A stretch of DNA of 64,000 bases, from positions 1 through 64,000 of IMG/VR virus record IMGVR_UViG_3300022725_000082; one strand, written 5' to 3'. Numbering within the stretch: position 1 is the stretch's first letter; the number at the start of each line of letters is the position of its first letter. Below, in pieces: positions 48,593 to 59,147 of the stretch. The DNA comes from a virus. A program made the translations under genes and the position numbers. The notes beneath the pieces were generated by a model that saw nothing but the letters and a program-made list of their open reading frames with translations, was not told where the DNA came from and did not search any database.

Positions 48593-50299
48593 ATGGTATT
48601 TACAAGATTTGAAAATATGGAAGATTTTTTAGCTAAGTATAAAGCTGCGCATAAGTCAAAACTTAAAATTGAAGAATTGGCTTATATAATGAATGTAAAG
48701 CCTGATACTATAGCCAGAAGAAAAATAACAGTCAAACATCATATGGGAGTTGAACTTCCGCAATTAAAAAGGTATGGGGGAGATTTAAAGAAAGTAAATT
48801 CTGTTATACCGTCAGAAGAGAGTAATGAAAAATTTTGTAGAGAATTAGCCAAACTGGAAGAAGCAAACAAAAGGTTTGTAGTTGAAGAAAAGAGAGAAAA
48901 ACGTAAAATTTATGTTATAACGTCAGCCCAAAATGCCACTCCGATATTTACAAGCTTTCTAGATTGTATAAAGGTTTATCTCAGGGAACGGAACGCCGAA
49001 CTTATGGTTATTCCTAATAGATATCGAAACCCGACATCAATATGGTCTGATATGAATAAAGACAATGAATGGTGGGATCACCGAATTCAAAAATATTTGG
49101 TCGAAAAAAGAGTTAAACTCAACAACAATATTGATATAATGGGGAATATAAAAATACAACCCACTGCAGTTAACCCATTAAGTGGTTTTGAAACTTATAC
49201 CGGAGAGTCTTCTGCCATATTTGGACATCCGTCAATTCAATTGAAGAGTGTTCCAACTCCAGCCAAATCCATGCCTAAAATATTATCTACTACAGGTTCA
49301 ATAACACAACCTAACTATACAGATAGTAAAGCGGGACACAAAGGAGAATTTAACCACTGTTATGCAGGGACTATTGTGGAAATAGATGGTGACGCTTTTT
49401 ATACTAGACATATTCATGCAAATGATGATGGTGAATTTTATGATTTAGATCGTTATTATACTGCGGATGGATCTCGTAAAACAGATTCGATTCCTGCACT
49501 TATAACGGGAGATATACATGCAGTATTTCATGATGAAAATGTAGAAAAGGCAACATATACCAACGACGATTCTATAGTTAACACACTAAAACCAGAAAAT
49601 TGGGTTATTCATGATTTAGAGGATTTTTATTCTAGAAATCATCACCATAGAGACAATGATATATTAGCATTTGGAAAGCATCATTTTAAAAAACGGGATA
49701 ATGTTGAAGAAAGCCTACAAATTTCAGCAGATTTCGTTGATAAACATTCCAGACCTTTTATGCAAAATATAATTGTTAGGTCTAATCATGATGAGGCTTT
49801 TGATCGGTGGTTAAAAGAGGCTGATCCTAAAAAAGATCCAGAAAATGCACTTTTTTATCATTATATGAAATATTATCAATATAAAAATGTGGTAGAAACA
49901 CCCACTAGCTATAAAACCATAGATGCATTTGAATTTTGGTGTAAAAATCCAGAGTCGTGTAGAGGATTAGCAAATATAGAAAATACTACATTTCTTAGTA
50001 GAGATGAGAGAGATCCTAAAAGAGTTATAAAAGGAATAGAAATAGGTTACCATGGTGATAAGGGGCCTAATGGAACACGGGGGAATTTAAGTAATCTATC
50101 TAAAATGGGACCCAAAATTATTATAGGTCACAGTCATACCCCCGGAATATTACATGGAACATATCAAGTGGGGGTCAGTGCCAGAATAGATTTGGAATAT
50201 GCTTCTGGTCCTTCAAGCTGGCTTCATACACATTGCTTGATATACCCCGATGGTCATAGGACGCTAATACATATAGTAAAGGGAAAATGGAGATTATAA
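48593..50299 (+). CDS. T5 A1-like protein with metallophosphoesterase domain
   Basis: A 568-residue protein. The N-terminal 60 residues form a helix-turn-helix-like segment (KIEELAYIMNVKPDTIARRK). The C-terminal half has metallophosphoesterase motifs in order: ITGDIHAVFHD, NIIVRSNHDEAFDRWL, GYHGDKGPNG and IIIGHSHTPGILHGTYQVG. This arrangement is that of the T5 pre-early protein A1, needed for second-step DNA transfer and host DNA breakdown. A related role here, in host genome degradation or DNA metabolism, is an inference. It is co-transcribed with terminase genes. Confidence 0.72.
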   Translation: MVFTRFENMEDFLAKYKAAHKSKLKIEELAYIMNVKPDTIARRKITVKHHMGVELPQLKRYGGDLKKVNSVIPSEESNEKFCRELAKLEEANKRFVVEEKREKRKIYVITSAQNATPIFTSFLDCIKVYLRERNAELMVIPNRYRNPTSIWSDMNKDNEWWDHRIQKYLVEKRVKLNNNIDIMGNIKIQPTAVNPLSGFETYTGESSAIFGHPSIQLKSVPTPAKSMPKILSTTGSITQPNYTDSKAGHKGEFNHCYAGTIVEIDGDAFYTRHIHANDDGEFYDLDRYYTADGSRKTDSIPALITGDIHAVFHDENVEKATYTNDDSIVNTLKPENWVIHDLEDFYSRNHHHRDNDILAFGKHHFKKRDNVEESLQISADFVDKHSRPFMQNIIVRSNHDEAFDRWLKEADPKKDPENALFYHYMKYYQYKNVVETPTSYKTIDAFEFWCKNPESCRGLANIENTTFLSRDERDPKRVIKGIEIGYHGDKGPNGTRGNLSNLSKMGPKIIIGHSHTPGILHGTYQVGVSARIDLEYASGPSSWLHTHCLIYPDGHRTLIHIVKGKWRL

Positions 50300-50311
50300 A
50301 ATGGAGATTAT
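50284..50311 (+). repeat. Tandem duplication of 14 bases at a gene junction
   Basis: AAAATGGAGATTAT occurs twice in a row, followed by AAAATG of the next gene. The first copy encodes the last residues of the A1-like protein, so the duplication created a spare ATG and GGAG in the ribosome-binding region of the next gene. Confidence 0.8.
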
Positions 50312-50314
50312 AAA

Positions 50315-50620
50315 ATGAATAAAGTAGGAAAAAATTTATATCATGTAAAAGTAGACTTCTCTGCTAGTTGGGAAAAAACGCCAATTACTAAAAAGGAAAA
50401 ATATTTAGATAGTTTACGACGGAGTTTAAAACACAATTTTCCAGAGTACTCGTGGATAGTGACGGATGATAGGATAAGCATAGAAAGTATTTCTCCAACC
50501 GACGCACCAGAACTTTATGAAGTGGATGAATTATACAACCATCAACAGCTTATGTTAGATAACATGAAATCTGATGGTAATACTATTATTGAAACGTCTA
50601 GACGATCTATACCCTGCTGA
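50315..50620 (+). CDS. Hypothetical protein, 101 residues
   Basis: Starts MNKVGKNLYHVKVDFSASWE and ends shortly after ETSRRSIPC. Mixed beta/alpha with acidic C-terminal half. The ribosome-binding GGAG comes from the 14-base duplication. Its stop (TGA) overlaps a CTG that could start the next frame. No family recognised. Confidence 0.58.
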   Translation: MNKVGKNLYHVKVDFSASWEKTPITKKEKYLDSLRRSLKHNFPEYSWIVTDDRISIESISPTDAPELYEVDELYNHQQLMLDNMKSDGNTIIETSRRSIPC

Positions 50621-51243
50621 AATATATTAAATATATATTAGAACATAACGAAGGCTATCTTATTCGGTACAACGGACCAAATTCATATTTTACTAGTGGT
50701 ACATTTCAAAAACTAGAGAACCTGTTAAGGTCTGATACGACTATCTTTTCCCCGCCTGATTCGGAATATAAAATAATAAAAAATGAACTGAGTTATAGGG
50801 GTAACACCGTAAGAACACAATCTGGTAATGATAATGGTGACATTAGGGGAATGCGATATAATGGAGTAATAGACATTTATGATAATGTACGTATAGATAA
50901 TAAATTTTTTACTAAGTTAAGCGACAAACCAATTGTAGAATCTTCATGTGATGGAAATCATAAAATTATATGTATGCGTACTGGAACCCCTGATAGTTTA
51001 TATAGAAAAGCACTATTAACTGGAGAATTAGGTAATATAAAATTCAAGAACAAATTGAAATTAGATTATACTGAGTTAGATTTATTAAATGATAGAGAAA
51101 GTGACATACTAAAACTTTCAGATAATAGAAAATATGAACACCTTAAATCTACATTGGGAGAAGAAAATTTTGAGCAAGAATATGGTTTAAAATTGGAGTT
51201 TTCTAATATCTCGCCATATTATTATGCTAAAACAAAATTTTAA
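50617..51243 (+). CDS. Hypothetical protein with no ATG start, about 208 residues
   Basis: The frame is open from 50602 to 51243, but its first ATG is at 50851, well inside protein-like sequence (LEHNEGYLIRYNGPNSYFTS, IFSPPDSEYKIIKNEL). No ATG, GTG or TTG fits the beginning. The CTG at 50617 overlaps the upstream stop as CTGA, analogous to ATGA coupling, and is my preferred start; a frameshift from the preceding gene is the alternative. A beta-rich protein without recognised family. Confidence 0.5.
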   Translation: MKYIKYILEHNEGYLIRYNGPNSYFTSGTFQKLENLLRSDTTIFSPPDSEYKIIKNELSYRGNTVRTQSGNDNGDIRGMRYNGVIDIYDNVRIDNKFFTKLSDKPIVESSCDGNHKIICMRTGTPDSLYRKALLTGELGNIKFKNKLKLDYTELDLLNDRESDILKLSDNRKYEHLKSTLGEENFEQEYGLKLEFSNISPYYYAKTKF

Positions 51244-51244
51244 A

Positions 51245-51271
51245 GTCTTCTCTTTAAGGTCTTCTCTTTAA
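51245..51271 (+). repeat. Duplicated GTCTTCTCTTTAA unit
   Basis: Two copies at 14-base spacing in the gap before the terminase gene. It resembles a slippage product; no hairpin is formed. Confidence 0.7.
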
Positions 51272-51291
51272 AGTCGTTTATTTAAAACAAT

Positions 51292-51299
51292 AATAAATA
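51292..51299 (+). promoter_or_regulatory. T4-late-type promoter box before gene 17
   Basis: AATAAATA, 26 bases before the ATG of the terminase N-terminal part, giving TerL a late promoter separate from gene 16. Confidence 0.5.
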
Positions 51300-51324
51300 T
51301 CTGTGACCCTTCATAGATATTTGC

Positions 51325-51945
51325 ATGAGTAGACGTAGAGACCCTAGATTAAAAAAAGCACATGAAGAAATAGAATTTGATCAGAGTATGGTCAGAGAAC
51401 TCATGCGCTGTTCTACTGATCCAAAGTATTTTATAAAAAATTATATCAAGGTTAAACACCCCAAAAGGGGTAAAATTCCTTTTGCATTGTATGACTATCA
51501 GGAAGAAATGGTAGATCTTTATAATAGTGATGATGATGTAATTATTATGAGTGCCAGACAAACAGGTAAAACCGAATCAATTTGTGCCTATCTTCTTTGG
51601 TATGCAATATTTAATGAAGATGTAACAGTTTTGGTAGTATCTAATAACTCTACTAATGCGATGGAAATTATTTCAAAAGTTCAATATGCATATAAAGAAT
51701 TGGATAATTGGATTAAACCCGGAATTGATGATGATTCATGGAACAAGCACGAATGTAAATTTGATAATGGCTCAAGGATAGTTTCTACTACTACCACTGA
51801 AGATTCTGGCCGAGGTATGGCGATATCGTTATTGTATTGTCATCATAAAGATTCTACTGTTACTGTACGAGATAAATTGACTGGCGAGGTTAAAGAGATT
51901 ACACTAGAAAAGCTTTATGATGATTTGTCTAATGGAAAAGAGTGA
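51325..51945 (+). CDS. gp17: Terminase large subunit gp17, N-terminal part fused to intein-N 1
   Basis: A 206-residue protein. Residues 1-171 are the start of a T4-type terminase ATPase: adenine-binding FALYDYQEEM, Walker A SARQTGKT (76-83), VLVVSNNSTNAMEI and GRGMAISLLY, the hydrophobic half of Walker B. At residue 172 the sequence leaves the terminase and continues as CHHKDSTVTVRDKLTGEV, an intein block A opening with Cys1, and stops after 35 intein residues. The rest of the Walker B motif (CDELAF) is found in another gene, at 53883. This part alone cannot hydrolyse ATP productively; it must be trans-spliced. Confidence 0.92.
   Translation: MSRRRDPRLKKAHEEIEFDQSMVRELMRCSTDPKYFIKNYIKVKHPKRGKIPFALYDYQEEMVDLYNSDDDVIIMSARQTGKTESICAYLLWYAIFNEDVTVLVVSNNSTNAMEIISKVQYAYKELDNWIKPGIDDDSWNKHECKFDNGSRIVSTTTTEDSGRGMAISLLYCHHKDSTVTVRDKLTGEVKEITLEKLYDDLSNGKE
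51838..51942 (+). other. Intein-N fragment 1 (35 residues, atypically short)
   Basis: Begins with Cys1 (TGT at 51838) directly after LLY of Walker B. Block A is DSTVTVRD and is followed by EVKEITLEKLYDDL. The stop follows at 51943. Most split inteins have N fragments near 100 residues; a fragment of 25-40 residues is characteristic of the AceL-TerL type of terminase intein. Confidence 0.85.
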
Positions 51946-53572
51946 AATAATAGAATATATTGAAAAAAAGAGGAAAATATCAAACAAATTTACCAAACCT
52001 CCTAAAGAATTTGTTGATAGTTTAAAAAGACATACGTCGCATTTAAAAATTTGTGATAGAACGCCAGTAACTGCACAACTCATATGGCATTTTGAATATA
52101 ATAAAGACACGCCATCCTGTCAAGAATGTGGTGTTAAAAATGTTAAATGGAATGAAGCAAAAAGAAATTATAGATCTTTTTGCTCGCCAAAATGCGCAAA
52201 TAACAACAAGCATAAAAAAGAAAAAATAAAAAAAACCCAAGAAGAAAATGGGGGACATCCCTCTATCAGACCTGAAGTACAGAAACGATCAAAAGAAACT
52301 AATATGGTTAGATATGGAACACCATATATCTTAAAAAATAAAAGCATACGAGCTAAAGCAATTAAAACTAATTTAGAAAGATATGGTTTCCCATCTTATA
52401 CCCAAACACCTAAAGCACGAAAGGAAAAAAGTGAATGGCTGAAAGACAACCCAGATCACATGAAATTAATGCACCAAAAATCTAAAGAATATAAACAAAC
52501 AGAAGAATATAAAAATAATTATAGGGATACATGTATAAAAAGGTTAAATATAAATGTAAAGAATGAAAGCGAGTTTAAAAATTATTTAAAAAAACAACAT
52601 ATAGAGAATAAAAAAACCGCTACAGAGATATCTCAAGAAATAGGGATGCATATTAGTAGTGTTTGCAAATGGTTAGGAAAGATGGATGTTGATCGTAAAT
52701 ATTATTACACATCAACAGAACAAAATGAAGTATATGATTTTTTAAAAGAATATGATGTAGATCTACGATCTAATGTCAGAGATGTCATCAGTGGGATAGA
52801 ATTGGATATATATGCACCAGATAAAAAAATCGCAATAGAATATTGTGGGCTATATTGGCATTCTGAGATACATAAACATACAACATATCATAGAGAAAAA
52901 TATTTGAAATGTAAAGAACAAGGAATAAAATTAATAACCATATTTCAGGATGAGTGGTTACATAAAAAAAATATAGTAAAAAAAATGTTATTGGCAAAAC
53001 TTGGTCTTTTATCTGATACTAAATTGTATGCTAGAAATACTTATTGCAAAGGCGTCTTGGATTATAAAAATGTTGAGAATTTTTTAGAGCGAAACCACAT
53101 TCAGGGGAGGTCTAGTGGATCATTTTACATAGGGCTGTTTGATGATTCAAATGAATTAGTTGCTATTGGGGTTTTTAGGAAAAAGTCTGAATGTGAATAT
53201 GAATTGACACGATATGCTACTAGTACTTTAGTTATAGGTGGATTTTCAAAAATATTGAAAGGGCTTGAACGGAAAATCGAAAAGGGTAAATCGGTTATAA
53301 TTTCGACCTTTGCAGACCTCAGATATTCAGAAGGAAATCTATACCAAAAGACCGGTTTTAATTTGGTAAAAGAATTAAAACCTGATTACAGTTTTGCTAA
53401 AAGAGATATCAGAATGCATAAATTTAATATGCGAGAACTAGTACGAGAAAACTCGAAAGAGTTAGAGAATGATAACTATTCTATAAATAAAATAGCCAGC
53501 ATATTAGGGTATTATAAAATATATGATTGCGGGAAACAAAAATACACAAAAACAATCACTGGTAGAAAATAA
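51917..53572 (+). CDS. Free-standing Vsr-like homing endonuclease between split-intein halves
   Basis: A 551-residue protein (or 546 from a second ATG at 51932) overlapping the end of the gp17 N-part in another frame. It has cysteine pairs CQECG and FCSPKC, RYGTPYIL and RYGFPSYT repeats, an HTH-like ATEISQEIGMHISSVCKWLG, the intact nuclease core ELDIYAPDKKIAIEYCGLYW with a downstream HREKY and TIFQDEW, and the shared C-terminal module (RNHIQGRS, FADLRYSEGNLYQKTGF, IYDCGKQKY). It is not fused to the intein. Its likely target is the uninterrupted Walker B codons of terminase genes, so that it spreads the whole split arrangement. Confidence 0.88.
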   Translation: MMICLMEKSEIIEYIEKKRKISNKFTKPPKEFVDSLKRHTSHLKICDRTPVTAQLIWHFEYNKDTPSCQECGVKNVKWNEAKRNYRSFCSPKCANNNKHKKEKIKKTQEENGGHPSIRPEVQKRSKETNMVRYGTPYILKNKSIRAKAIKTNLERYGFPSYTQTPKARKEKSEWLKDNPDHMKLMHQKSKEYKQTEEYKNNYRDTCIKRLNINVKNESEFKNYLKKQHIENKKTATEISQEIGMHISSVCKWLGKMDVDRKYYYTSTEQNEVYDFLKEYDVDLRSNVRDVISGIELDIYAPDKKIAIEYCGLYWHSEIHKHTTYHREKYLKCKEQGIKLITIFQDEWLHKKNIVKKMLLAKLGLLSDTKLYARNTYCKGVLDYKNVENFLERNHIQGRSSGSFYIGLFDDSNELVAIGVFRKKSECEYELTRYATSTLVIGGFSKILKGLERKIEKGKSVIISTFADLRYSEGNLYQKTGFNLVKELKPDYSFAKRDIRMHKFNMRELVRENSKELENDNYSINKIASILGYYKIYDCGKQKYTKTITGRK

Positions 53573-53882
53573 TAGATATGAAATATTAACACCAAATGGA
53601 TGGGAAGATTTTTTAGGAGTAACAAAAAATCAAAAAGATTTTGAATCTATAGAAATAGAGACTAAATCCGGAAAAACAATTCACTCAACTAAAAATCATA
53701 GACATTGTTCAAAATCTGGTGAATATATTCCGGTTAATGAATTTAAAGAGAATGACGAAATTCATACTACCGAGGGATTAGAAAAAATAATACATATTAC
53801 AGAAAAAAATCTCAGTGAGACTTATGATATATTTAAAACTGATTCTAATACTGTAATTGTGAATAAAGTATACACCCATAAT
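53523..53882 (+). other. Intein-C fragment 1
   Basis: About 120 residues. After a linker comes YEILTPNGWEDFLGVTKN. Block B is TIHSTKNHRHC with the TxxH motif, block F is ETYDIFKTDSNTVIVNKVY, and block G ends His-Asn. The next residue, Cys+1 (53883), begins the terminase stretch CDELAF. All splice-junction residues needed for activity are present. Confidence 0.88.
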
Positions 53883-54527
53883 TGTGACGAACTCGCATTC
53901 GTTAAGTCCAGTATACAGGAAAAGTTCTGGACATCTATATCTCCAACTTTGGCTACGGGAGGAAAGTGTATAATATCTTCTACTCCAAATGGAAACTCAA
54001 ATTTATTTGCAGAATTATGGCGGGGAGCAAATAATGAGATAAATTCGTTCAAATATAAGCATGTTCCATGGGATGCCCCACCGGGTAGGGATGAAGAATT
54101 TAAACGTCAGCAAATAGGGAAGATCGGTAAAAGAAAATGGTATCAAGAGTATGAGTGTTGCCATCCGACCTCGTTAATAGAGTTGAGCGACAATGATGAA
54201 CGCATGTTTGTTAAAGTACCAATTTCTTTAGCATATGAGTGTCTACGCAACAATAAAGATATATTTAATTTATCACCACCGTGCCTGACTGGAAAATATG
54301 TCATTTCTCCATTAGATGGAAATAAGTATTGTAGAAAAAACGGTAGATTTTTGATGCACCTTAAGGAAAATGGATATATATCATATGAAGATTTTTTTGA
54401 AAGTTTATTCCCCCAGCACAAAAAAGTCTGTTCCTATTGTAGAAAAACAGCTTCTTTCAACAATTCTACCATGAGTTATTTACGAACATGTGGGGATCGT
54501 GTATGTGTTGGAAAAGAAACATCTTAG
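53523..54527 (+). CDS. gp17: gp17 middle part flanked by intein-C 1 and intein-N 2
   Basis: A 334-residue protein made of three pieces. Residues 1-120 are intein-C 1, ending VYTHN. Residues 121-211 are terminase: CDELAFVKSSIQEKFW (acidic end of Walker B), GGKCIISSTPNGNSNLFAEL (motif III) and RKWYQEYE. Residue 212 starts intein-N 2 (CCHPTSLIELSDNDER), which runs to the stop. The ATG at 53523 lies inside the endonuclease gene, overlapping it by 50 bases. This polypeptide must undergo two protein trans-splicing reactions, one at each end. Confidence 0.9.
   Translation: MIAGNKNTQKQSLVENNRYEILTPNGWEDFLGVTKNQKDFESIEIETKSGKTIHSTKNHRHCSKSGEYIPVNEFKENDEIHTTEGLEKIIHITEKNLSETYDIFKTDSNTVIVNKVYTHNCDELAFVKSSIQEKFWTSISPTLATGGKCIISSTPNGNSNLFAELWRGANNEINSFKYKHVPWDAPPGRDEEFKRQQIGKIGKRKWYQEYECCHPTSLIELSDNDERMFVKVPISLAYECLRNNKDIFNLSPPCLTGKYVISPLDGNKYCRKNGRFLMHLKENGYISYEDFFESLFPQHKKVCSYCRKTASFNNSTMSYLRTCGDRVCVGKETS
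54156..54524 (+). other. Intein-N fragment 2 with a fused endonuclease remnant
   Basis: Begins at Cys212 of the middle gene. Of two adjacent Cys codons (54156, 54159) the first is preferred, because joining it out restores the terminase sequence QEYE-CRFL. Block A is PTSLIELSDNDERMFVKVP. After roughly 35 residues the sequence changes to a segment with VCSYCRKTASF and LRTCGDRVC, spaced like the zinc-finger N termini of the phage homing endonucleases here, and then stops. It looks like the leftover of an endonuclease gene fused in frame. Confidence 0.78.
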
Positions 54528-54584
54528 GACACCATAATTTGCAAATGTTGGATAGTAGAGAAAATAGAAGGAAGAGTTTCAAAT

Positions 54585-54926
54585 ATGAATAACTTGGCGT
54601 TCAATGATAATAACTGGAAAATAAAATCAATCAATGGCTATGAATCTTTTACAGGAATAGCTAATATGGGAAGTAAGAAAATTTATGAAGTAAACTTTTC
54701 TGATAATACTAAAATTAAGGTTACTAAACACCACAAATTCATTAATACGAACCTAGATGTGATTGAAGTTATTAATTTAAAATCAGGAGACCAACTATTA
54801 TCAACAAATAGCAATGTTGTTAAAATAGTCAACGGCATACATAAAACAGATGAAAAAACAGACGTATACGATGTAATTGAGTCTTCCAGTAATATGTTTT
54901 TTTTGAATGGTGTATTAAGTCACAAT
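54585..54926 (+). other. Intein-C fragment 2
   Basis: 114 residues, clearly related to intein-C 1: WKIKSINGYESFTGIAN matches the NGWEDFLGV region. Block B is KIKVTKHHKF (TxxH), block F is VYDVIESSSNMFFLNGV, block G ends LSHN. Cys+1 at 54927 starts the terminase segment CRFLSED. Confidence 0.88.
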
Positions 54927-55730
54927 TGTCGCTTTTTATCAGAAGATCATACTCTTATTGATACCATGATCATCAACAACATTGAAAATGAAATGGATGA
55001 GAAATATAAGGATAACGGCGGAGACCCACCAGTAGCATTCAAGATTGGAGATCTTGAATTCTTTAAGAAGATAAATAAATCCATGGCATATTTAGTGTCT
55101 GTTGACGTTGCATCAGGATCAGGAAGTGACTTTTCTGTTATTGAAGTAACGGAATTTCCGAGTATGGAACAGGTGTTGGAATTTAGATCTAATAACACAA
55201 ATGAAAAATTTTTATATTCCAGACTTAAGAATATTCTCCTATTTTTGCAACAAAATAGTAAAGAAGTCTATTTCTCTGTAGAGAATAATGGATTGGGTGC
55301 AAGTATATTGGCATTGTATGAATATGATGAATCACCACCGCAAAGCGCATACCTCATTTCTGATAGTAACAACAAGAGGCTAGGTCTTTCAATGTCTGAA
55401 ACAACTAAACGTACAGCTAGTATGAAACTTAAAAATATGATTGAAACAAGATCATATAAATTTTATTCTAAACAAATAATTAAAGAACTAAAGAGCTATA
55501 CGCGTCAAGGCGCCAACTTTAAGGCAGAGGTGGGATCTACTGATGACACTATATCAGCATTATTAATCCTAATGAGAATGTTAGAAGAAATGGCTGACTA
55601 TAATCCATATGCGTTCGATAAGATTTATAATATAAAAGGACAGGATGATAAACAGGAAGAATTTGATGAAGAATTTGTAGACGATCCTAAGACACTAGAT
55701 GATATGCCGATGCCTATTAGTATAGCCTGA
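54585..55730 (+). CDS. gp17: Terminase large subunit gp17, C-terminal part fused to intein-C 2
   Basis: A 381-residue protein. Residues 1-114 are intein-C 2. Residues 115-381 resume the terminase: CRFLSEDHTLID, then the RNase-H-like nuclease domain with VSVDVASGSGSDFSVIEV (first catalytic Asp), VYFSVENNGLGASIL and STDDTISALLIL (C-terminal acidic residues). The ATG has a GGAAGAG ribosome site. Together the three extein parts (171, 91 and 267 residues) give 529 residues, a normal size for marine T4-like TerL. gp17 pumps DNA into the prohead through gp20 and cuts it. Confidence 0.92.
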   Translation: MNNLAFNDNNWKIKSINGYESFTGIANMGSKKIYEVNFSDNTKIKVTKHHKFINTNLDVIEVINLKSGDQLLSTNSNVVKIVNGIHKTDEKTDVYDVIESSSNMFFLNGVLSHNCRFLSEDHTLIDTMIINNIENEMDEKYKDNGGDPPVAFKIGDLEFFKKINKSMAYLVSVDVASGSGSDFSVIEVTEFPSMEQVLEFRSNNTNEKFLYSRLKNILLFLQQNSKEVYFSVENNGLGASILALYEYDESPPQSAYLISDSNNKRLGLSMSETTKRTASMKLKNMIETRSYKFYSKQIIKELKSYTRQGANFKAEVGSTDDTISALLILMRMLEEMADYNPYAFDKIYNIKGQDDKQEEFDEEFVDDPKTLDDMPMPISIA

Positions 55731-55737
55731 AGATTTA

Positions 55738-55745
55738 TATAAATA
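55738..55745 (+). promoter_or_regulatory. T4-late-type promoter TATAAATA
   Basis: Exact consensus, 24 bases before the ATG at 55769. Confidence 0.62.
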
Positions 55746-55768
55746 GAACATAATATATAATGTTATGA

Positions 55769-56326
55769 ATGAAACTAGAATCTCTATTTTTATTTGAAAG
55801 GACAATGGGTTCTTTAGTATCGGTGACTAGAAACTCATTTGGTCCCGATAGAGACACTAATTCTAATGCGGTACAAGTTAAGGATGTACAATATATACCA
55901 TTGGTTGAGCAAGGAATGATGCAAGTTAAAGCTAGGACCTTTAGTGGCCCTGATGCTAATGAATATCAATCTATCATATCGATAGATGATGTTGAATATA
56001 TAAATGAAGAAGAATTTAATAATATGCAAGGAACGAGCGAGGTAGTATTTGAACTTATATCTTCTGGTGGAACGCCATTTTATGTTAAAGATAATAGAAC
56101 AAATAATGATGTAAAGGTTAGATGTACTTGTGAGGATTTTAGATGGAGATTTGCCAAATATAATTATAATGATCAGAGTCTACAAGGTGACCCACCAGAA
56201 GCGTATGCGAAGAAAACGGATAGACCCTCTGTGAATCCACATAATACACCGGGAGTTTGTAAACATCTAATTAAACTTAAGAAAGAATTAGAAAGAGACG
56301 ATTTTTTTAGAACAGTGTTGCAGTAA
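55769..56326 (+). CDS. SWIM-type zinc-finger protein
   Basis: A 185-residue late protein. The C-terminal half carries the CxC...CxH pattern of a SWIM domain: VRCTCEDFRW, a basic/polar insert, then NTPGVCKHLIKL. The N-terminal half is beta-rich (VKDVQYIPLVEQGMMQVKAR). SWIM domains bind DNA or proteins. Small proteins of this design recur in phage genomes without assigned role. An exact late promoter indicates virion or late function. Confidence 0.65.
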   Translation: MKLESLFLFERTMGSLVSVTRNSFGPDRDTNSNAVQVKDVQYIPLVEQGMMQVKARTFSGPDANEYQSIISIDDVEYINEEEFNNMQGTSEVVFELISSGGTPFYVKDNRTNNDVKVRCTCEDFRWRFAKYNYNDQSLQGDPPEAYAKKTDRPSVNPHNTPGVCKHLIKLKKELERDDFFRTVLQ

Positions 56327-56346
56327 TACATTCAAGACTATATAAT
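56318..56346 (+). promoter_or_regulatory. Sigma70-type promoter of gene 32
   Basis: TTGCAG, 17 bases, TATAAT. The -35 box overlaps the end of the SWIM gene. The predicted start near 56353 gives a leader of about 120 bases. Confidence 0.62.
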
Positions 56347-56401
56347 GTTCTAAGAACATTGGATACATCCTGTATCCATAGAAAAAGGCACATGGGGTGC
56401 C
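56345..56401 (+). promoter_or_regulatory. Three consecutive hairpins in the gene 32 leader
   Basis: AATGTTC/GAACATT, GGATACA/TGTATCC and GGCAC/GTGCC stems follow each other closely, then about 70 bases of A-rich, apparently unstructured leader reach the AAAGGAGA ribosome site. T4 gene 32 mRNA is autoregulated by gp32 binding from a 5' structure into an unstructured leader; the layout here is comparable, though I do not see the T4 pseudoknot itself. Confidence 0.5.
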
Positions 56402-56474
56402 ATAGAGATAGTACGATTAGAAACGATACTAGACAGCCTAAGAAACTTAAGAAATTTAAGAAAGGAGATTAAAT

Positions 56475-57464
56475 ATGGCTAAAAAATTAACGATGAAAGA
56501 AATTCAAGAGTTAGCAAAAAAGAAAACTTCTGGTGGGGATAAACAAAAGTTTAAGAACAGTGATATATATCCATTTTGGCTAATGGCGGAAGATGAAATC
56601 GCTAAGGTAAGATTTCTTCCAGATAAAAATAAAGAAAATGTTCTTCCATTTATAGAAAAATTGGAGCATAAATTAACGATAGGCGGTAATATTAGAAAAA
56701 TTCCATGTCCTAAAATGTATGGACATAAATGCCCTATTTGTGACTTATCTCAGGAATACTATAAATCAGAAGGGGATGATTCTAGTAACGGAAAATATTA
56801 CTACCGTGATCGGATGCATTTAATTAGAGCAATTATAATAGAGGATCCTCTTCCACCTGATTCTGAAACGGGAGAAACGTATGTAGGAAAGACTGCAACA
56901 CTGCAATTAGGCTTTCAAATATATGAAAAGATTATGGAGCAATTAGGAACATTTTTCGACGATGACGACATGCCACCATGGGATTTTGATGAGGGGTATA
57001 ATTTCAATATTAAAAAAGTGAAGCAAGGTAAATATTTTAAATATGATATAGGATCATCATTTGACCGTAAACCTAGTTCTATACCTGATGAATATTTGGA
57101 AAATGTCGAGCTTATAGATTATAGAACTCTTCTACCAGAAGAGATTACTTATGATAAAGCTAATGAATTTCTTGAGAAGCACATGTCTGGTGGTGTGGAC
57201 GATGAAGATAGCTTAGAGAATAAAAAGGTAAAGTCACTAGATGGCGCTGAAAAACGCGCAGCAATGCTGGCACGTTTAGAAGGTAACTTTGAAGAAGATG
57301 AAGAAGATGAAGAAGATGAAGGTGAGGAAGGTGAGGATGATGAACAGGATGATGAACAGGATGAAGCAAAAAAAGCAATAGAAGAAATTGCTAAAGAGGC
57401 TGAAGACGACGACGAAGATGCTGAATTACAAGCAATAATAAACCGCCGAAGAAAGAAATCTTGA
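56475..57464 (+). CDS. gp32: Single-stranded DNA-binding protein gp32
   Basis: A 329-residue protein, near T4 gp32 (301). The N-terminal basic region (MAKKLTMKEIQELAKKK) is the cooperativity domain. The OB-fold core starts with YPFWLMAEDEIAKVRFLPD and carries a zinc site in CPKMYGHKCPICDLS. The C-terminal tail from about residue 270 is very acidic (Glu/Asp runs), the part that contacts replication and recombination partners. It coats single strands during replication, recombination and repair. Confidence 0.93.
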   Translation: MAKKLTMKEIQELAKKKTSGGDKQKFKNSDIYPFWLMAEDEIAKVRFLPDKNKENVLPFIEKLEHKLTIGGNIRKIPCPKMYGHKCPICDLSQEYYKSEGDDSSNGKYYYRDRMHLIRAIIIEDPLPPDSETGETYVGKTATLQLGFQIYEKIMEQLGTFFDDDDMPPWDFDEGYNFNIKKVKQGKYFKYDIGSSFDRKPSSIPDEYLENVELIDYRTLLPEEITYDKANEFLEKHMSGGVDDEDSLENKKVKSLDGAEKRAAMLARLEGNFEEDEEDEEDEGEEGEDDEQDDEQDEAKKAIEEIAKEAEDDDEDAELQAIINRRRKKS

Positions 57465-57535: not shown

Positions 57536-58561
57536 ATGGCGAACCCATTGAATAAATTTAAAAAAGATATAGAAAAAATGAAAGATGTTACGACTAATTC
57601 TGCGCCACCTAAATATTGGCTCAGTACCGGTTTCTATATTATTAATAAAACGATTACGGGATCATATGACAAAGGATATGCATCGAGTAGAGTATCTATG
57701 TTGACAGGCCCTTCTAGTGCTGGAAAGAGTTTTATGGCCATTCAATCTGCAGTAGAAGCTCAAAATATGGGATATATTGTGTTTATAGTTGATTCAGAAC
57801 ATGCTTTAGATGATAATTATATGAAAGCTGTAGGATTAGATGTAAACTCAGAAACATTTTTTTATAATGATGTTAAATCATTAGAAGCTGCTAAAAAAGT
57901 GACCGCTGCATTCATCAATATGTACAGAGATAATAAAGACGAGTTGCCACCTGCGTTAATCTTGATTGATAGTATGGATCAGCTTAAAACAAAAACACAT
58001 GTAGAAAAATCTGAAAAAGGTGAAGTGCATAATGATCAGGGACAGCATGCTAAACAGCTTAAACAATTTGCGGCGGATATAGCGCATGAGATAAAAAGCT
58101 TAGATATATTTTGTATTATGACAAAACAGCCGTATAAAAATCAAGATCCCATTATGGCAAAAGTGCAACCATATATAATTACAGATGCCATGCGATTTCC
58201 ATTTAGCCAAATTATACTTTTGACTAATAGGAGACTTAAAGATAAAACAACTAAAAAGGTTGAAGGTATAGCCCTAAAAGTATTCGCAGAAAAAACTAGA
58301 TTTACTAAACCATTTCAATCCTGTGTGGTAGACATACCATATGATAGTCCAATCGATCCATATAGTGGAGTGTTAGAAGCAGCAGAAAATATAGGAATAA
58401 TAAAAAAAACTGGTGCATGGTATGATTTTGAAGGGAATAAGTTTCAAGAACGCAATTCAAACCATGTTATAGAAGAAATATATAATAAACTTAGAGAAAT
58501 GGATGAGGACGAAAATGTTGTATTAGAGTTTGGGAATGATGAGGAAAAGGATGAGAAGTAG
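57536..58561 (+). CDS. uvsX: RecA-like recombinase UvsX
   Basis: A 341-residue RecA-family protein. Walker A is GPSSAGKS (58-65), followed by FIVDSEHALDDNYMKAVG, LILIDSMDQLKTKTH (Walker B) and a ITDAMRFPFSQIILLTNRR segment. The C terminus is acidic. It forms filaments on single strands and drives strand invasion for recombination-dependent replication. AAAGGAG precedes the ATG. A small gene overlaps its end, then the uvsY-like and uvsW-like genes follow. Confidence 0.95.
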   Translation: MANPLNKFKKDIEKMKDVTTNSAPPKYWLSTGFYIINKTITGSYDKGYASSRVSMLTGPSSAGKSFMAIQSAVEAQNMGYIVFIVDSEHALDDNYMKAVGLDVNSETFFYNDVKSLEAAKKVTAAFINMYRDNKDELPPALILIDSMDQLKTKTHVEKSEKGEVHNDQGQHAKQLKQFAADIAHEIKSLDIFCIMTKQPYKNQDPIMAKVQPYIITDAMRFPFSQIILLTNRRLKDKTTKKVEGIALKVFAEKTRFTKPFQSCVVDIPYDSPIDPYSGVLEAAENIGIIKKTGAWYDFEGNKFQERNSNHVIEEIYNKLREMDEDENVVLEFGNDEEKDEK

Positions 58562-59147
58562 TAAGGTAAATTTAAAAAAATTATTTAAAAAAAGAGAGCA
58601 GCATTATTTAGCGACTACTCAAGAAATACTGGAAGTTTTTTTACCACCATTGAGTGATGCTATTAAAGATGTAATATATGATGGTAAACCCATAAACATA
58701 TTAGTAAAAGGTGTTTATCCAGTAATTGATAATTTAAACTATATTTCCATCATTGCTAAAGTTTCAGATTTTTCTATAGGAGATATAATTTCTGTTATAG
58801 ATGACAGTAATACAGAAAATGTTGCAGAAAATGTTGCAGAAAATGTTGCAGAAAATGTTGCAGAAGATGTTACAGAAGATATAGAAATAACTAAAAATAA
58901 TTACTGGAAATGGGCCAGTACTATAACGTTAAATATGCCTATATCAGTGTTGGAAACTCAAGATGAAAATGCTATGATGGAGTTTCTTAATGAAGTATAT
59001 GATGAAGATAGCATAGAAACAACCTTTATAAATGAAGATGGAAAAATATTAGATGACGAGACGTTTGATGAAAGTAAACTAGATAAAACACAACAAGAAT
59101 TATTAGGGCTACAAGTGTATGGCAAAAATAATGGAATAAAACATTAA
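58551..59147 (+). CDS. Hypothetical protein with an ENVA tandem repeat
   Basis: A 198-residue protein from the ATG at 58551, which has a better placed GGAAAAGG than the ATG at 58530 and reduces the overlap with uvsX to 11 bases. It has a basic N terminus (MRSSKVNLKKLFKKREQHYL), a beta/alpha middle, four exact ENVA repeats plus degenerate copies, and an acidic C-terminal half. Placed between uvsX and uvsY-like, it may belong to recombination or replication, but no family is recognised. Confidence 0.6.
   Translation: MRSSKVNLKKLFKKREQHYLATTQEILEVFLPPLSDAIKDVIYDGKPINILVKGVYPVIDNLNYISIIAKVSDFSIGDIISVIDDSNTENVAENVAENVAENVAEDVTEDIEITKNNYWKWASTITLNMPISVLETQDENAMMEFLNEVYDEDSIETTFINEDGKILDDETFDESKLDKTQQELLGLQVYGKNNGIKH
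58815..58874 (+). repeat. Tandem repeat of 12 bases (GAAAATGTTGCA)
   Basis: Four exact copies (58815-58862) and a degenerate fifth, all in frame and encoding ENVA. A likely slippage-prone linker that could vary in length between strains. Confidence 0.9.

What the first reader, a model, noticed from the sequence alone, without database searches (positions are those of the whole stretch)
51325..55730. Large terminase broken into three genes by two split inteins
Three separate genes carry gp17 pieces that join seamlessly only if two inteins are removed by trans-splicing: ...GMAISLLY + CDELAFVKSS...WYQEYE + CRFLSEDHTL... Both junctions have Cys1, TxxH block B, His-Asn and Cys+1. The joined extein is 529 residues, a normal TerL. 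Single fractured genes with split inteins are known from marine metagenomes; I know of no described terminase that needs two trans-splicing steps, with one protein (the middle piece) serving as C-extein for one intein and N-extein for the other. Every virion would depend on it, and it makes motor assembly dependent on two protein-ligation steps.
Basis: partly seen in the sequence, partly recalled or inferred. Interest (0 to 1): 0.95.

Follow-up and report, generated by a model that had tools for sequence, protein, structure and literature searches.

The report
Phage packaging motor in three pieces
A large bacteriophage encodes its DNA-packaging motor protein as three separate genes whose products must be stitched together by two self-splicing split inteins, and at least eight other phage lineages do the same or more (one uses four pieces), so this is a real and recurrent but, as far as I could find, unreported extension of known "fractured genes".

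Summary
TerL (T4 gp17 type) lies in three genes: N-extein+IntN1, IntC1+middle extein+IntN2, IntC2+C-extein. Removing both inteins gives 529 aa. A 94%-identical relative (L004) carries the same 529 aa as one intein-free gene, so both insertion sites are exact. A second contig (L002) repeats the cluster without a single difference. Both IntC families match solved inteins by profile (site 2: Cat consensus intein 4e-30; site 1: gp41-1 intein 3.5e-13). IntC1 folds as a Hint domain (pLDDT 90; best PDB match Cat).

Both inteins belong to the atypically split kind (short IntN, long IntC) already known from single terminase splits (GOS-TerL, AceL-TerL). A Vsr-like homing endonuclease gene sits inside intein 1. 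A remnant of another endonuclease is fused to IntN2.

The double fracture is not unique. Eight further TerL lineages in IMG/VR have it, most at the same two sites. One (L194) has four genes, three split inteins and one continuous intein. Inteins cluster by site, not by phage, so each was acquired separately.

Best reading: two orthogonal protein trans-splicing reactions rebuild a TerL otherwise cut through Walker B. No splicing was measured. Novelty: new variant of a known kind.

The parts
51325..51837 (+). TerL N-extein (171 aa; Walker A SARQTGKT), ends ...GMAISLLY
   Evidence: PF03237 Terminase_6N 1.2e-6, phrog_5989 terminase large subunit 4.7e-54; 97.7% identical to L004 TerL
51838..51942 (+). 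IntN1, 35 aa, starts Cys1 (CHHKDSTVTVRDKLTGEVKEITLEKLYDDL...), then TGA
   Evidence: homologous IntN at the same or a neighbouring site in L088, L080, L172, L055 and others
51917..53572 (+). free-standing homing endonuclease ORF (551 aa; alternative ATG 51932), Vsr/MTES_1575-like, DUF7487; overlaps end of gene A and start of gene B
   Evidence: phrog_3339 homing endonuclease 7.9e-100; PF18741 and PF24308; homologue in the same place in L055
53523..53882 (+). IntC1 (up to 120 aa; block B TKNH; ends THN)
   Evidence: profile of 22 site-1 IntCs matches gp41-1 intein 3.5e-13 and CatC 5.5e-10; AlphaFold2 pLDDT 89.7, Foldseek best hit Cat intein 6dsl
53883..54155 (+). TerL middle extein (91 aa; Walker B D/E immediately after Cys+1; ISSTPNG motif)
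   Evidence: 95.6% identical to L004; dN/dS 0.03; aligned to T4 gp17
54156..54269 (+). IntN2 core (about 38 aa), starts Cys1 (CCHPTSLIELSDNDERMFVKVPISLAYECL...)
   Evidence: junction fixed by L004 (YE|CRFL); similar CC-type IntN2 in L064
54270..54527 (+). 85-aa extension of IntN2: N-terminal zinc-finger piece of a decayed site-2 homing endonuclease, ending in TAG
   Evidence: 37% identity, E=1e-15, to residues 1-83 of the endonuclease between IntN2 and IntC2 in L253; weaker match to L088
54528..54584 (+). 57-bp spacer, open in the gene B/C frame, with an AAGGAAGAG Shine-Dalgarno-like stretch before the ATG of gene C
54585..54926 (+). IntC2 (114 aa; block B TKHH; ends SHN)
   Evidence: PDB 6dsl Cat intein 5e-6 alone, 4.3e-30 with the site-2 profile; PF14890 2e-8, just below its cut-off
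54927..55730 (+). TerL C-extein (267 aa; RNase H-like nuclease) and stop
   Evidence: 91.4% identical to L004; T4 gp17 alignment; phrog_36964 terminase 4.7e-20

Best explanation
The TerL gene of a jumbo myophage (nearest isolates Xanthomonas phage XacN1 and relatives, about 49% identity) has been invaded twice, at two sites, by related but different atypically split inteins. Three polypeptides are made from one overlapping gene cluster: A = TerL(1-171)-IntN1, B = IntC1-TerL(172-262)-IntN2, C = IntC2-TerL(263-529). IntN1 binds IntC1 and IntN2 binds IntC2, each completing a Hint fold. Two Cys1/Asn/Cys+1 trans-splicing reactions then release the inteins and join A-B-C into the 529-aa motor. The first cut lies inside Walker B (LLY|C-D-E), so ATPase activity should exist only after splicing 1. 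The second lies between the ATPase and nuclease domains. Intein 1 still carries a complete free-standing homing endonuclease gene, the probable driver of its spread. Intein 2 keeps only an endonuclease remnant and persists because it must splice. Shown here: gene structure, homology, fold of IntC1, exact junctions, independent recurrence, purifying selection. Inferred: expression, splicing, orthogonality, endonuclease activity.
For: Empty-site relative with the identical junctions and length. Joined protein matches T4 gp17, E 5.9e-43. Intein profiles and fold. Catalytic residues Cys1, TxxH, His-Asn and Cys+1 at both. The cluster is identical in a second contig, with only one SNP and one 12-bp indel in 12.8 kb, both outside it. 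The same three-gene layout at the same sites in L088, L159, L169, L170, L172 and L253, with two-site or three-site variants in L264 and L194. The double state appears in 9 separate places on the TerL tree, and well-supported branches force at least 8 changes. Inteins group by site (6 changes against 26.2 shuffled), so the two are not copies of each other. Exteins under purifying selection (dN/dS 0.03-0.05 against L004); in L088 against L169, both doubly split, IntN1 0.11, IntC1 0.10, IntN2 0.26, IntC2 0.38.
Against: No protein or splicing data. IntN1 and IntN2 depart from the usual block A (no G-D-T). The start of gene B (ATG 53523) has no strong Shine-Dalgarno sequence. IntC1 alone is only a weak intein match; the case rests on its family. 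The record is incomplete (74 kb; related contig 270 kb), so an intact second TerL elsewhere is not excluded. L002 may not be a fully independent sample. The dN/dS against L004 also includes time before the split. The L088-L169 values for IntN rest on 31-34 codons.
Confidence: 0.87

Rival explanations
1. Intein 2 is really continuous: the single in-frame TAG between genes B and C is read through or recoded, so only intein 1 works in trans and the TerL comes from two polypeptides.
For: Genes B and C share one frame with only TAG 54525 between them.
Against: TAG ends other genes of the phage, for example the UvsX-like gene 57536-58561, whose length agrees with L004. Gene C has its own ATG behind an AAGGAAGAG stretch. 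No tRNA gene, and so no suppressor, in the window. In L088, L170, L172, L253 and L024 the two halves are separate ORFs.
Confidence: 0.07
2. The TerL pieces are decaying or redundant: an intact TerL elsewhere in the genome does the work, or the pieces assemble without splicing.
For: The genome record is partial. A TerL-like paralogue just upstream is indeed broken (50315-51243).
Against: All three exteins are 91-98% identical to the intact L004 protein with dN/dS 0.03-0.05. All catalytic intein residues are kept. The same layout is kept in other lineages under purifying selection. Site 1 cuts Walker B, and a non-covalent ATPase split there is improbable (inference).
Confidence: 0.05
3. Assembly or sequencing errors broke one or two continuous inteins.
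For: AT-rich homopolymers; the three frames of gene A, endonuclease and gene B differ by +1 each.
Against: Identical in a second contig. Intein 1 would need two frameshifts at just the endonuclease borders, where independent L055 and L088 show similar overlapping or abutting gene ends. Eight further lineages.
Confidence: 0.01

Closest known systems
AceL-TerL / GOS-TerL / engineered Cat atypically split inteins
   Same: Split near the N-terminus (IntN 25-37 aa, IntC about 104 aa), inserted in phage terminase large subunits; IntC2 matches Cat at 4e-30 by profile; contigs with Cat-like IntCs (L266, L271, L273) have them at site 2.
   Different: Known cases describe one split intein per terminase (PMC11766414). 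Here two work on one protein, with a middle fragment bearing IntC and IntN; site-1 inteins form a separate group.
Fractured genes with split inteins and Vsr-like homing endonucleases (Dassa et al. 2009, NAR 37:2560; paper not held, content recalled)
   Same: A phage gene broken by a split intein with a free-standing Vsr-like endonuclease gene in between: exactly the layout of intein 1.
   Different: As I recall it, one fracture per gene; here two, and elsewhere three (L194). At site 1 other phages have an unrelated endonuclease family in the same intein.
T4 gp17-type large terminase
   Same: ATPase plus RNase H-like nuclease along the full length (3ezk, 5.9e-43).
   Different: Encoded in three genes; needs two ligations.
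Tandem protein trans-splicing (engineering; PMC12707363, PMC7210297)
   Same: Three segments joined by two orthogonal split inteins, the middle one carrying IntC and IntN.
   Different: There it is man-made; here it is natural and recurrent.

Membership tests
Inteins (Hint splicing domains) | Nucleophile at position 1, TxxH block B, terminal His-Asn, C/S/T at +1 | tested here: met
   Cys1, TKNH/TKHH, THN and SHN, Cys+1 at both
Inteins (Hint splicing domains) | Profile match and Hint fold | tested here: met
   Site-1 and site-2 profiles match solved inteins; IntC1 model to Cat intein, TM 0.70. A complete Hint from IntN2+IntC2 folded without an alignment failed (pLDDT 38)
Inteins (Hint splicing domains) | Protein splicing activity | not testable with these tools
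   needs expression
Atypically split inteins (AceL/GOS/Cat type) | Short IntN (about 15-40 aa) with its own stop, IntC of about 100-120 aa with its own start, in separate ORFs | tested here: met
   IntN1 35 aa and TGA, IntC1 up to 120 aa; IntN2 core 38 aa (plus 85-aa remnant) and TAG, IntC2 114 aa
Fractured genes (Dassa type) | Split intein with a free-standing homing endonuclease gene between the halves | tested here: met
   Intein 1: phrog_3339 7.9e-100. Intein 2: endonuclease remnant only
T4-type TerL | Walker A, Walker B DE and nuclease region in one chain of about 530 aa after splicing | tested here: met
   529 aa; alignment with gp17
Group I / group II introns (considered) | Intron RNA in the gaps | tested here: not met
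   No intron family up to E 5 in 50000-57000

The most novel reading that the evidence does not exclude
Multiply fractured TerL is a stable class in which the ATPase core is kept in 3-4 inactive pieces (cut at Walker A, Walker B, motif III and hinge), so that several orthogonal trans-splicing reactions together set the time at which packaging motors become active, with orthogonality selected inside one protein.
Probability: 0.12. Interest if true: 0.88.

Novelty: new variant of a known kind. Interest (0 to 1): 0.66.

Why it matters
It shows that nature repeatedly builds an essential virion-assembly protein from three or even four polypeptides by two or three trans-splicing reactions, an arrangement that I found described only as an engineering scheme. 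It supplies ready-made sets of split inteins that must not cross-react inside one protein. It also supplies comparisons (closely related continuous, endonuclease-split and endonuclease-less split versions at one site) that make the origin of split inteins testable. And it warns that gene callers miss TerL, a standard phage marker, when it is in pieces.

Tried and rejected
Group I/II introns in the gaps: no Rfam match. Stop-codon recoding of TAG: other genes end in TAG at the expected place. Tandem duplication of one intein: the tree puts site-1 and site-2 inteins apart, and IntC1 and IntC2 are 28% identical. Folding IntN2+remnant+IntC2 as one chain with TAG read as Q and no alignment: pLDDT 38, uninformative. 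Looking for an isolated phage with the double split at these sites: none seen among the listed hits in the phage collection with IntC2, L088 gene B or L172 IntC2 as queries; single splits and an isolate with three inteins (one split, two continuous: Campylobacter phage CP21) were found. Dassa 2009 could not be read; literature searches found no natural protein described as needing two split inteins, but most subscription papers are not held. My automatic classifier missed some states (L064; L194 site 1; CP21), and these were read by hand.
Full report
What is in the window. Reading the region directly gives four overlapping or closely spaced + strand genes. Gene A (51325-51945) is the first 171 residues of a large terminase followed by a 35-aa IntN. 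An endonuclease ORF (51917 or 51932 to 53572) overlaps its end. Gene B (53523-54527) is IntC1, 91 residues of terminase, IntN2 and an 85-aa extension. Gene C (54585-55730) is IntC2 and the last 267 terminase residues. Catalytic positions are intact at both inteins: Cys1; TKNH and TKHH in block B; His-Asn at the end; Cys+1. The joined extein is 529 aa and matches T4 gp17 over nearly its whole length (3ezk, 5.9e-43).

The junctions are exact. The closest relative, L004 (a 270-kb IMG/VR contig from metagenome 3300023283), has an uninterrupted TerL of exactly 529 aa, 94% identical to the joined sequence, reading ...SLLYCDELSF... and ...QEYECRFL.... A second relative, L003, lacks inteins at these two sites but has a 440-aa continuous LAGLIDADG-like intein at a third. 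Contig L002 repeats the window's cluster letter for letter; over 12.8 kb it differs by one SNP and one 12-bp unit elsewhere.

The inteins are inteins. IntC2 alone finds the consensus atypical intein Cat (6dsl, 5e-6) and just misses Pfam's Intein_splicing cut-off. IntC1 alone is weak. With the families collected here, the site-2 profile matches Cat at 4.3e-30 and the site-1 profile matches gp41-1 intein at 3.5e-13 and Cat at 5.5e-10. IntC1 modelled with its relatives (22 rows) has pLDDT 89.7; the best PDB match is Cat (TM 0.70) and nearly all of the top 50 are inteins, the rest other Hint-fold proteins (hedgehog, bacterial intein-like domains). No intron RNA was found.

The homing endonucleases. 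The ORF inside intein 1 belongs to phrog_3339, homing endonuclease (7.9e-100), with a Vsr-like MTES_1575 nuclease domain. L055, a distant contig with a split a few residues from site 1, has a relative of this gene in the same place, overlapping the end of gene A by 29 bases as in the window. In several other phages the same site-1 intein carries a different endonuclease, without a Pfam match (L088, L159, L253), so endonucleases have colonised this intein more than once. In intein 2 of the window the endonuclease has decayed: residues 39-123 of the IntN2 part are 37% identical (1e-15) to the first 83 residues of the DUF7487 endonuclease that sits between IntN2 and IntC2 in L253.

It recurs. Scans with the middle extein and with the two IntC families, followed by a mechanical classification and inspection of ORFs, gave three-gene TerLs with gene B = IntC-middle-IntN in L088 and its near copy L163, L159, L169, L170, L172, L253, and L264 (first site a couple of residues away; its N-part was not confirmed). 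TerL identities among these, L194 and the window run from 25 to 79%. On a TerL tree of 155 rows the doubly split state needs 9 changes, at least 8 forced by well-supported branches; the window's nearest relatives, L004 and L003, lack both. L194 (235.8-kb contig) goes further: four TerL genes, split inteins at Walker A (SRQSGK|STIV), Walker B (GMLI|CDEF) and the hinge (QQEFG|CEF), plus a continuous intein in the STPNG motif. Among 137 loci found by extein motifs alone only two were classed as doubly split, one of them the window's own phage, so the arrangement is rare.

Two separate acquisitions. A tree of 69 IntC sequences sorts them largely by insertion site (6 changes against a shuffled mean of 26.2), and the two inteins of one TerL are never nearest kin. 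The window's two are on long branches and their exact place is unsure. This is what orthogonal pairs would look like, although orthogonality itself was not tested; GOS-TerL and AceL-TerL IntN fragments are interchangeable in the laboratory (PMC11766414), so cross-reaction is a real risk that divergence would reduce.

How splits arise and persist. Site 1 offers comparisons. L171 has a continuous intein whose IntC is almost the same as that of L174, where an endonuclease-like ORF lies between halves with their own stop and start. L181 has the split without that ORF, next to L185 with it. Insertion of an endonuclease gene into a continuous intein, then loss of the endonuclease, leaving a split, is the simplest history (inference). 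The window's intein 1 is at the endonuclease stage and intein 2 at the late stage. The N-extein tract 51291-51840 is 96% identical in DNA to L004 and ends at the intein-1 insertion, while the middle and C-exteins have dS 1.1 and 2.3 against 0.19: a recombination tract as expected around a homing site, though its direction cannot be told.

Function. Dividing TerL between Y171 and C172 puts Walker A on A and the Walker B Asp-Glu on B (the alignment with gp17 supports these assignments), so the motor ATPase should be dead before splicing 1; the nuclease is on C. dN/dS of all three exteins against L004 is 0.03-0.05. Between L088 and L169, both doubly split, it is 0.11 and 0.10 for IntN1 and IntC1, and 0.26 and 0.38 for IntN2 and IntC2, so the intein parts themselves are under constraint.

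What remains open. Splicing, its order and rate, cross-reaction and endonuclease cleavage are unmeasured. The genome is incomplete. The single TAG between B and C leaves some room for read-through. No isolate with the double split was found, but coliphages of the Krischvirus group that grow on E. coli K-12 or XL1-Blue have a singly split TerL and would let natural TerL trans-splicing be followed directly.

Noticed in passing
window 50315-50620 and 50851-51243; L004:4214-5152: Directly upstream of TerL lies a TerL-like protein with a degenerate Walker A (TSRQSGST), intact at 312 aa in L004, broken into two ORFs in the window and truncated in L003; E=1e-5 to TerL over the P-loop region. Role unknown.
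   Followed up: partly
window 58813-58824: 12-bp unit in an AENV repeat stretch is present in the window and absent in the otherwise near-identical contig L002.
   Followed up: no
L194:3018-8118: TerL in four genes with three split inteins and one continuous intein.
   Followed up: yes
L284 (Campylobacter phage CP21, record 90462-94748): Three inteins in the TerL of an isolated phage: continuous at Walker A, split just before Walker B, continuous directly after the DE; the middle piece is not annotated.
   Followed up: partly
L061 (Agrobacterium phage Atu_ph07, record 79548-81739): TerL annotated as two genes is split inside Walker A by a cysteine-less-looking intein (Ser1, Thr+1).
   Followed up: partly
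L283, L286 (Krischvirus kaaroe, JK32): Split TerL at IDE|C with an endonuclease domain fused to IntN (read in kaaroe; JK32 has the same gene coordinates); grown on E. coli K-12 / XL1-Blue.
   Followed up: partly
L003:14-1408: Second intein-like insert in the gene upstream of TerL (IGHSH|C...N|SPGIFQ), in the phage whose TerL also has a continuous intein.
   Followed up: no
L285 (Campylobacter phage PC5, record 72400-73728): The TerL C-part gene begins with an IntC, but no TerL N-part is annotated next to it; the N-part may lie far away in the genome.
   Followed up: no
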